Positions 32,556 to 33,720 of a DNA stretch of 64,000 nucleotides are shown here, piece after piece. The translations under genes were made by a program, and so were the position numbers. The DNA lies in assembly GCF_900098745.1 (NCBI RefSeq), contig NZ_FQTT01000011.1, positions 130,255 through 194,254 of the forward strand, written 5' to 3'. Every line of letters begins with the position of its first letter. The first letter of the stretch is position 1. This stretch comes from Actinomyces glycerinitolerans (GTDB lineage Bacteria; Actinomycetota; Actinomycetes; Actinomycetales; Actinomycetaceae). The notes under the pieces were generated by a model. That model was not told the origin of the DNA. It saw nothing but the letters and a program-made list of their open reading frames with translations, and did not search any database.

Positions 32556-32934
32556 TGCTCTTCGTTCCTGGTGACTACGGGTGGGCGGCCCCACGCGCAC
32601 CGGGCGGTGCGCCGCTCAGGCCGGCCCAAGTGTATGCGGGTGTTCGCCGGTCGCGGTGTGGCGTGCGTCCCGCTCGCCCGACCAGCCTCCGCCGCTCCGC
32701 TCGCCGAAGTCGACACGAGTGGCGCACCGCGACCGATGCAGGCGGCGCATCACAGTCAAGGCCGAGCGTTTCCGGCTCTTCGTGTTTGTGGGTGTGGTGG
32801 GTGGGGTGTCTGGGTGGTGGTTTGTGTGTGTGCTTCGGCGGGTGCGATGAGCGGGGATGGGATAGTTCACCGCGAATCTCGGTGAATCTCGGTGAATCTC
32901 GGTGGATCACGGCGGACAGCGGCGGATCGTGCGT

Positions 32935-33148
32935 GACGGTTCGGGTGCTTGCGTGAGAGTTCGCGCCTTCGCCTGACGGTTCGTACGCTCGGGTCGACGG
33001 TTCGGCACATCCAGCGACGGTTCGTACGCTCTGGTCGACGGTTCGGCACATCCGGCGACGGTTCGTGGGATAGGGGTACGAACCGTCGCCGTTCATGCCG
33101 AACCGTTGCTGCTACCTGACGAACCGTCACCGGAACACACGAACCGTC
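32935..33148. repeat. Phased array of GACGGTTCG motifs, seven direct then four inverted (20-21 bp period)
   Basis: GACGGTTCG starts at 32935, 32975, 32996, 33016, 33037 and 33057, with a degenerate GAGAGTTCG at 32955. The inverse CGAACCGTC starts at 33079, 33120 and 33140, with CGAACCGTT at 33099. Steps are 20, 20, 21, 20, 21, 20 and then 20, 21, 20. Within it, 32975-33015 and 33016-33056 are 41-bp tandem units matching at 39 positions. Confidence 0.85.
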
Positions 33149-33387
33149 CACCCCGCTACGCCACCCCCATGACGCCGACCAATGACGGCCCGCAAGTCAG
33201 AACACTCTGCCGCTGCACTCGGCAGTCCACCTGACCCGCGCCCGGCGGTGCGGGCCAGCGCCCGGCTGAGTGGCTCGTCGGCGTGGGCCTGGGCTTCAGG
33301 GACGGGGACCCGACCCCCGTGGCCCGGGGTTGGCGGGGCCCGTGTTCCCCGGCCGGCTGTGCTCCCGTGAGACGACCGCCATGTCGA

Positions 33388-33447
33388 TTTACGACCTTGG
33401 GGTGCGAATCACGACCACCCCGGAGTCGTAAACCACACCCCAAGGTC
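33388..33447. repeat. Nested inverted repeats
   Basis: GACCTTGGGGTG (33393-33404) pairs exactly with CACCCCAAGGTC (33436-33447). TTTACGAC (33388-33395) pairs with GTCGTAAA (33425-33432). ACGACC also recurs at 33391 and 33411, and AAACCA at 33430 and 33450, again 20 bp apart. Confidence 0.75.
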
Positions 33448-33517
33448 AGAAACCAGCACTGACCAGCGCTTCGCACTCGAGGGTGCGACCGCACGGAACC
33501 ACCACGCGGCAGGCCCC

Positions 33518-33628
33518 CTCGGACGCGGCACGCCATCCACGGGCCCGGCAGGCCGCCCTCGGGCACGGGAGATGGCCTTCGGGCACGTGAGGCTGCGCGC
33601 GGGCGCGGGAGAGGTCGTCCTCGGCAGA
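33518..33628. repeat. Degenerate 20-bp phased array around CGGGCACG
   Basis: Related decamers start at 33518, 33538, 33558, 33578, 33598 and 33619 (CTCGGACGCG, CACGGGCCCG, CTCGGGCACG, TTCGGGCACG, CGCGGGCGCG, CCTCGGCAGA). The steps are 20, 20, 20, 20 and 21. The outer copies are weak. Confidence 0.55.
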
Positions 33629-33720
33629 ACTCGTTCTCAGGCCAACCAGAACACACCACCAGCCACACCCCCAAACACGAAGAGCCGCGTTTCCGCGGCA
33701 GGGACACACCAACACCGCCC

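What the first reader, a model, noticed from the sequence alone, without database searches (positions are those of the whole stretch)
32935..33148. Helically phased motif array: seven GACGGTTCG then four inverted copies
Eleven copies of a 9-mer (two slightly degenerate) step by 20 or 21 bp, i.e. two helical turns, so all copies face one side of the DNA. The array flips orientation once, near 33066-33078, giving a large palindromic plan. Such phasing is typical of iterons, centromere-like sites or multi-dimer operators, and no gene explains it. The next gene (a lipoprotein cluster) starts 617 bp downstream and fprA reads away on the other side.
Basis: seen in the sequence. Interest (0 to 1): 0.68.

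Follow-up and report, generated by a model that had tools for sequence, protein, structure and literature searches.

The report
Nuclease-like gene's phased repeat, transposon-borne
A ladder of evenly phased DNA sites in a rumen bacterium turns out to be one of dozens of copies of a repeat that also brackets a nuclease-like gene on both sides, and many related genes in other actinobacteria are bracketed by repeats of their own of the same build, which points to an unrecognised pairing of a protein family with dispersed DNA repeats.

Summary
In detail: 7 forward and 4 inverted 9-mers at 20/21-bp steps. The site-specific reading (iteron, centromere, local operator) is not.

Shown: (1) The array is cargo of a 913-bp ISL3-type miniature element (32774-33686) with TIRs, a perfect 8-bp target duplication and a precise empty site in a relative. 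(2) The array recurs at 26 fetched places of this genome; 7 of 49 Actinomyces genomes (own included) have it, with a near-invariant grammar (20-21-20 | 22 | 20-21-20). (3) In 6 of these 7 genomes it stands on both sides of one gene for a DUF559/AbiEi-like, nuclease-like protein. (4) This is general: 36 of 49 such loci in Actinomyces and 16 of 26 in other genera of the order are flanked by direct copies of a repeat, nearly always palindromic and mostly with a 19-21-bp internal period (random segments: 24 of 450). The repeat changes with the protein lineage; the window element carries repeats of two lineages.

Inferred: the DUF559-like protein binds its array as a same-face oligomer, and the pair works like REP/RAYT "REPtrons" with an unrelated enzyme. 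Binding, mobilisation and role are untested.

The parts
32766..32773 (.). target-site duplication, left copy (GCGTTTCC)
   Evidence: identical 8 bp on both sides of the element; single copy GCGATTCC at the empty site in G029
32774..33686 (.). 913-bp ISL3-type non-autonomous (MITE-like) element without a transposase gene
   Evidence: TIRs (32 of 37 identical), 8-bp TSD, empty site; ISL3 transposase family PF01610 has no match in this genome
32774..32810 (+). left terminal inverted repeat
   Evidence: same TIR type with 8-bp duplications at transposase-bearing elements L080, L081, L087, L088
32935..33065 (+). forward arm: seven 9-mer sites (one with 2 mismatches) at 20/21-bp steps
33066..33078 (.). 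13-bp centre of the palindromic plan
33079..33148 (-). reverse arm: four inverted 9-mer sites (one with 1 mismatch)
33385..33456 (.). second phased palindrome (ACGACC at 33391 and 33411, inverted counterparts near 33425 and 33444): related to the repeat that brackets another DUF559-like paralog
   Evidence: 33391-33447 matches the repeat of L266 (79%, E 2e-8) and, over 38 bp, that of this genome's own paralog at C6:69663 (L257, 82%, E 2e-4); I6
33650..33686 (-). right terminal inverted repeat
33687..33694 (.). target-site duplication, right copy (GCGTTTCC)

Best explanation
The array is a cognate repeat of a DUF559/AbiEi-like protein lineage, carried to this site by an ISL3-type miniature transposon. 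Shown: the insertion, the dispersed family with its strict grammar, its place on both sides of one DUF559-like gene in six species, and the same arrangement with other motifs at most other DUF559-like loci tested. Inferred: the DUF559-like protein (nuclease-like C-terminal part) recognises the 9-mer half-sites; spacing by two helical turns puts all subunits on one face of the DNA so that they can form a cooperative, possibly DNA-bending, oligomer on each arm, meeting head to head at the 13-bp centre. The flanking direct copies bracket and perhaps regulate the gene; the dispersed solo copies are non-autonomous derivatives, as REPs are of RAYT genes. In the rumen Actinomyces clade they spread further by riding in ISL3-type elements.
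For: Insertion: TIRs, TSD and empty site. Family: 26 fetched places in G000, 7 of 49 genus genomes. Grammar. Constraint: orthologous locus A in five species, inner six sites 14/540 pairwise differences in motif positions against 59/460 in linkers; folD-side array 25/540 against 55/460. Gene link: DUF559-like ortholog (72% identity or more) in 6 of the 7 array-bearing genomes and in none of the other 42 (next best 44%), bracketed by arrays in all six. Generality: 36 of 49 DUF559-like loci in Actinomyces with flank-to-flank direct repeats, against 2 of 23 folD loci, 8 of 150 mismatched flank pairs and 24 of 450 random segments; 34 of 36 repeats more palindromic than the best of 40 shuffles; self-period peaks at 19-21 and 40-42; 16 of 26 loci in other genera of the order. 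Repeats alike in 33 of 35 protein pairs of 70% identity or more and 0 of 595 below, including 0 of 18 pairs within one genome.
Against: No binding or cleavage was tested. 13 of 49 Actinomyces loci and 10 of 26 others lack the flanking repeat. G064 keeps dispersed arrays but has no close DUF559 ortholog; its folD-xthA gap holds one solo array. The array can therefore persist without that gene. The protein/repeat correlation is confounded by descent, since pairs of 70% identity or more are mainly orthologs of near relatives, and many of the 49 loci are orthologs, so counts are not independent. The query protein scores below the Pfam cut-offs of DUF559 and REase_MTES_1575, and no DNA-binding domain was detected in its N-terminal part. 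ISL3 elements with transposase carry no 9-mer, so the array is not needed for transposition. One of three DUF559-like loci from the plasmid collection (Nonomuraea) shows no such repeat.
Confidence: 0.58

Rival explanations
1. A host chromosome-organising or regulatory protein, not the DUF559-like protein, binds the arrays; they act as insulators or topological boundaries between genes, and DUF559-like genes merely often lie between two such sites.
For: 0 of 82 core arrays overlap a predicted gene; array-bearing gaps are 19 convergent, 34 tandem, 7 divergent against 4, 35, 19 for other gaps of 100 bp or more in the fetched loci and window; arrays persist without the DUF559 gene in G064.
Against: A host protein would be expected to keep one motif, whereas the repeat changes with the DUF559-like lineage and paralogs in one genome have different repeats (0 of 18 pairs alike). 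The convergent bias could simply be selection against insertion into promoters, and the gap counts include orthologous loci.
Confidence: 0.2
2. The repeats are AbiEi-type autoregulatory operators; copies elsewhere are by-products or decoys.
For: AbiEi-family antitoxins bind inverted repeats in their own promoters, in one case two sets of them (PMC7319586, abstract seen); PADLOC AbiEi models match P0001 at E about 1e-5.
Against: The second copy lies downstream of the gene; at the folD locus there is room for only one gene between the arrays and the neighbours are folD and xthA, so no toxin partner is seen; dozens of copies lie at unrelated loci.
Confidence: 0.11
3. The array works as a structured RNA or DNA hairpin (terminator, REP-like stem).
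For: Quasi-palindromic; compact versions in other lineages have almost perfect arms (for example L142, L152, L145).
Against: In the GACGGTTCG family, linkers pair with their own mirror arm no better (42%) than with arms of other arrays (45%), and 9-mer substitutions are mostly on one arm only (509 single-arm, 88 both-arm, 39 of these complementary). Fixed 20/21-bp spacing is not needed for a hairpin. Rfam hits near the array (two strands of MIR6136, E 0.002-0.004) are far below the gathering score.
Confidence: 0.07
4. Subterminal sites for the ISL3 transposase, or neutral duplication without function.
For: 29 of 54 arrays with resolved gene context have a TIR on both sides and 10 on one; tandem unit gains occur in some arrays.
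Against: None of the 12 fetched ISL3 transposase loci has an exact 9-mer, including four with TIRs and perfect 8-bp duplications; 15 of 54 arrays have no recognisable TIR; motif positions are conserved between orthologous arrays; other DUF559 lineages have the same build with other motifs.
Confidence: 0.04

Closest known systems
REP sequences / REPINs with RAYT genes (REPtrons)
   Same: Dispersed, mostly intergenic palindromic repeats; a single-copy-like gene with copies of its cognate repeat beside it; repeat-specific genes where a genome has several families; few copies between divergent genes (PMC3116915 and PMC3733652, passages seen).
   Different: The gene is a DUF559/AbiEi-like protein with PD-(D/E)XK-like residues instead of a tyrosine transposase; repeats are multi-site arrays of 60-250 bp phased at 19-21 bp; arms of the family studied do not covary. 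No mobilising activity is known.
ISL3-family insertion sequences and their miniature derivatives
   Same: TIR beginning GGCTCTTC, 8-bp target duplication, elements with ISL3 transposase in other species of the genus.
   Different: The window element has no transposase gene and carries two phased palindromic arrays that the transposase-bearing elements lack.
AbiEi-family antitoxins with promoter inverted repeats
   Same: Weak sequence match to AbiEi models; repeat next to the gene.
   Different: Repeat on both sides and dispersed; extra nuclease-like C-terminal part; no toxin gene seen between the arrays at the folD locus.
Iterons and plasmid centromeres (recalled)
   Same: Helically phased direct repeats.
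   Different: Many chromosomal places and inverted arms; no replication or partition gene recognised next to the window copy.

Membership tests
ISL3-family MITE | terminal inverted repeats like those of ISL3 elements | tested here: met
   32 of 37 identical between ends; same TIR start at ISL3 transposase-bearing elements
ISL3-family MITE | 8-bp target-site duplication (recalled as typical of ISL3; also seen here at transposase-bearing elements) | tested here: met
   GCGTTTCC on both sides; in 24 array elements 5 have 8/8 and 4 have 7/8 identical flanks, 15 have 6 or fewer; four transposase-bearing elements have 8/8
ISL3-family MITE | no transposase of its own, mobilised in trans | tested here: inconclusive
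   no PF01610 match in G000; present in 32 of 49 genus genomes; mobilisation not testable
REP/REPIN with RAYT | 20-40-bp palindrome tagged GTAG or CGTC | tested here: not met
   arrays of 60-250 bp; the 9-mer begins GACG (CGTC on the other strand), but other lineages' motifs do not share this tag
REP/REPIN with RAYT | adjacent RAYT (Y1 tyrosine) transposase | tested here: not met
   the bracketed gene is DUF559/AbiEi-like; presence of a RAYT elsewhere in the genome was not searched
REP/REPIN with RAYT | repeat copies beside a cognate gene plus dispersed copies | tested here: met
   (functional analogy, not homology)
AbiE type IV toxin-antitoxin | bicistronic operon with a DUF1814 toxin | tested here: not met
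   folD locus: a single gene between the two arrays, then folD and xthA; other loci not inspected
AbiE type IV toxin-antitoxin | N-terminal DNA-binding domain | tested here: inconclusive
   AbiEi models match only residues about 123-174 of P0001; nothing N-terminal in Pfam at E 0.01
plasmid iteron or centromere | single locus next to a replication or partition gene | tested here: not met
   26 chromosomal places; window neighbours are other genes; no match in the plasmid collection
DUF559 / REase_MTES_1575 protein family | score above the Pfam gathering cut-off | tested here: not met
   P0001: 19.8 bits against 20.6 and 22.3 against 38.2; 17 of 20 aligned relatives match PF18741 and 9 match PF04480 at E 0.01, hence 'DUF559-like'

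The most novel reading that the evidence does not exclude
DUF559/AbiEi-like genes across Actinomycetota are the protein half of an unrecognised repeat-nuclease system: each lineage encodes a nuclease-like protein that recognises its own helically phased palindromic array, is bracketed by two copies of it, and generates, spreads or patrols solo copies in the genome, a REPtron analogue built on a PD-(D/E)XK instead of an HUH enzyme.
Probability: 0.35. Interest if true: 0.9.

Novelty: new variant of a known kind. Interest (0 to 1): 0.8.

Why it matters
DUF559-like genes are common in actinobacteria (114 of 149 genomes of the order had a match at E 1e-10), but Pfam still lists DUF559 as of unknown function. 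If each lineage has its own DNA target written on both sides of the gene, the target of many members can be read from the genome and tested directly. It would also give a second, unrelated solution to the REP/RAYT puzzle of how a single-copy gene and a population of dispersed palindromes stay together, and explain a class of intergenic repeats near which contigs of such genomes break.

Tried and rejected
Viral origin: 12 IMG/VR stretches have one exact 9-mer pair; none shows the inverted arm at the 22-bp centre and two (L225, L235) are a different, low-GC repeat array. The pattern in genome contigs (32 stretches) fell in three named Actinomyces species only (A. succiniciruminis, A. ruminis, A. 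ruminicola). No match to the 1-kb region in plasmids.

Rfam: only sub-threshold matches. RNA hairpin: no covariation.

My first idea that arrays without TIRs are mainly at convergent sites weakened on recount: among 54 loci, no-TIR arrays are 6 convergent, 8 tandem, 1 divergent; one search counts some loci twice (82 cores include overlapping registers of the same array).

Locus B (L032/L111) and the xthA-side array give weaker motif/linker contrasts (13/54 against 18/46; 69/540 against 85/460) because G000 has small indels that shift the register and G066 has Ns there. In one search the G012 row was read on the wrong strand; one search replaces it.

Dispersal outside the genus is weak: one marginal place (E 6e-4) in a 400-kb sample of G091; three solo places plus the two at the gene in 400 kb of G007.

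DUF559 relatives in IMG/VR: one weak, partial relative. PDB profile search: best hit 3r3p, 'Mobile intron protein', E 0.096, not significant. P0001 has no match in the plasmid collection; a relative from G074 gave three records.

Rows dropped before counts: L151 and L287 (their two 'flanks' overlap because the stretch is short). L276 and L286 are Actinomyces and left out of the 26 outside the genus. Of the 16 repeats outside the genus, L280 is only marginally palindromic and L299 has no 19-21 period. In the self-period sum seven orthologous elements (L133-L137, L260, L266) were left out, leaving 29. Palindrome exceptions: L150, L261. Control hits: folD loci L175 and L178.

Full report
Observation. 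The window holds seven forward and four inverted copies of GACGGTTCG (two of the eleven degenerate) at steps of 20 or 21 bp with a 13-bp centre. All nine exact copies in 64 kb lie in these 214 bp, so the clustering is real, although the number of one-mismatch matches in the window is at chance level.

Organism. The genome has 3,695,248 bases in 19 contigs. Relatives with the array in a named collection are rumen Actinomyces species. The published draft of A. glycerinitolerans G10T is 3.69 Mbp in 19 scaffolds (PMC5313611, whole text), so the window is probably from it; this is an inference.

A transposon carries it here. Inverted repeats of 37 bp bracket the array. The ends begin GGCTCTTC and enclose 913 bp, 32774-33686, flanked by the 8-bp duplication GCGTTTCC. 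In G029 the left flank matches up to the end of the duplication and the right flank starts with it, overlapping by exactly 8 bp: a precise empty site, reading GCGATTCC there. In G063 the two flanks are 9 bp apart, also without the element; the other four genomes searched were not resolved at this site. Transposase-bearing ISL3 elements in related species have the same TIR start, and four of twelve fetched loci show TIRs with perfect 8-bp duplications; none of the twelve contains an exact 9-mer. ISL3 transposase is absent from this genome and found in 32 of 49 genus genomes. The complete genome G029 has 214 TIR-like ends (control 0) and 45 palindromic 9-mer centres with up to three mismatches, some of them chance or register hits (control 1), so only a minority of TIR elements carry arrays.

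The array family. An exact phased pair occurs 55 times in this genome (reversed-pattern control 0), grouped into 26 fetched places with 27 arrays. Seven of 49 genus genomes, own included, have it. From the centre outwards the grammar is 20-21-20 on both arms with 22 across the centre. To avoid counting the search seed, I took only neighbouring sites of which at least one is inexact: 66 of 68, 58 of 59 and 32 of 32 spacings are 20 or 21 bp in G000, G029 and G005; the centre is 22 bp in 20 of 20, 10 of 18 and 13 of 13 (the eight others in G029 are other distances among one-mismatch hits). The mean step of about 20.5 bp is two turns of about 10.25 bp. The second site from the centre is regularly weaker (exact in 12-15% against 60-73% for the others).

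Constraint. Across 82 core arrays motif positions differ less (0.176) than linkers (0.485), but arrays were chosen by motif. Orthologous arrays are a fairer test: at locus A, in five species, the inner six sites differ at 14/540 motif against 59/460 linker comparisons, and on the folD side 25/540 against 55/460; two further loci with small indels or Ns show weaker contrasts. Linkers do not pair with their own mirror arm better than with other arrays (42% against 45%), which speaks against a hairpin.

Position. None of 82 core arrays overlaps a predicted gene (own codon-based gene finder). Array-bearing gaps are 34 tandem, 19 convergent, 7 divergent; other gaps of 100 bp or more in the same loci and the window are 35, 4, 19 (convergent against divergent, Fisher p 1.5e-4). 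Orthologous loci are counted more than once, and avoidance of promoters would suffice.

The gene between two arrays. In G000, G029 and G005 two arrays lie about 1.37 kb apart between folD and xthA and enclose one gene of about 355 codons. Its close orthologs (72% identity or more) occur in six of 49 genomes, all array-bearing; the next best is 44%. All six have folD-array-gene-array-xthA. The seventh array-bearing genome, G064, has a single array between folD and xthA and no such gene; G024 and G009, outside the clade, have folD and xthA facing each other without a 9-mer. In G005 the two arrays are nearly identical to each other and flipped relative to the other species, a sign of concerted evolution. 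The protein matches REase_MTES_1575 and DUF559 below Pfam's cut-offs, while 17 of 20 aligned relatives match the former and 9 the latter at E 0.01; AbiEi models match residues about 123-174 at E about 1e-5. D273, E284, D286 and K290 are invariant in 20 relatives, which I read as a PD-(D/E)XK-type site.

A general rule. For 49 DUF559-like loci of Actinomyces I compared the two flanks with each other: 36 have a direct repeat at E 1e-5 or better, against 2 of 23 folD loci outside the clade and 8 of 150 mismatched flank pairs, and 24 of 450 random 1-kb segments; Fisher p 9e-27 against the 300 segments of G007 and the window, with the caveat that many loci are orthologs. Thirty-four of these 36 repeats are more palindromic than the best of 40 shuffles; in 29 non-redundant ones the internal period peaks at 19 (16 elements, control 0), 20 (18, control 4), 21 (5, control 2) and 40-42 bp. 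In other genera of the order 16 of 26 loci show the same, mostly compact repeats of about 70 bp with two sites per arm at 19-20 bp. Outside the order, in the plasmid collection, flanking repeats at E 1e-16 or better occur in Tsukamurella and Collinsella, not in Nonomuraea; their palindrome scores are borderline and a 19-21 period was not seen there.

Specificity. Repeats are alike in 33 of 35 protein pairs with 70% identity or more and in 0 of 595 below; within one genome 0 of 18 paralog pairs share a repeat. Descent alone could produce the first number, not the last. The second palindrome of the window element, 33385-33456, is related to the repeat of another DUF559-like paralog (79% to its G064 relative's repeat L266, E 2e-8; 82% over 38 bp to this genome's own, L257), so the element carries repeats of two lineages. 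Solo copies are not limited to the GACGGTTCG family: repeats of L256, L257 and L259 recur in other fetched loci, and 400 kb of G007 hold three solo copies of its repeat (reversed control 0), while 400 kb of G091 hold one marginal one.

Mechanism. Most likely the DUF559-like protein binds the half-sites cooperatively on one DNA face; this is inferred from the bracketing, the lineage specificity and the phasing, and not shown. What binding does (autoregulation, cutting, mobilisation, patrol of copies) is open. The closest working analogy is the REPtron: palindromic repeats beside a RAYT gene and dispersed mainly between tandem and convergent genes (PMC3116915 and PMC3733652, passages). It is not a member of that family: no RAYT at the bracketed gene, no constant GTAG or CGTC tag, different size. 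AbiEi antitoxins binding promoter inverted repeats (PMC7319586, abstract) are the nearest precedent for the protein side.

Literature. Searches for DUF559 with palindromic repeats (two unrelated papers listed), DUF559 with mobile element, repeats and actinobacteria (none), AbiEi with inverted repeats, flanking, genome-wide and palindromic (one, on Tn7-like cargo, listing only), ISL3 with MITE and Actinomyces (none) and phased sites in MITEs (none) found no description; the library holds open-licence papers only.

Noticed in passing
window 32864-32925: A stretch with a roughly 10-bp repeat (GGTGAATCTC and variants) inside the element, just left of the array; helically phased at one turn.
   Followed up: no
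L029 2852-2889 (G000:C3): A near-perfect hairpin (GTCGTAGCCGACGCGCC...) next to the conserved array of locus A, conserved in four species; it looks like a terminator or another repeat family.
   Followed up: no
G000 C6:334, C11 end, C12 end, C14:647: Several contig ends of the assembly lie within about 0.4-0.7 kb of an array; the repeats probably broke the assembly.
   Followed up: no
L348 (Tsukamurella tyrosinosolvens plasmid record) and L347 (Collinsella aerofaciens): DUF559-like genes with flanking repeats outside the order: 55 bp at 89% around the gene between purine-synthesis genes, and tandem units of TGTCTC...GAGACA type.
   Followed up: partly
G005 L125/L132 (folD locus): Both arrays flanking the gene have been homogenised and flipped compared with the other species.
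   Followed up: partly
L225, L235 (viral contigs): A different repeat array in low-GC viral contigs contains exact GACGGTTCG pairs without an inverted arm.
   Followed up: no
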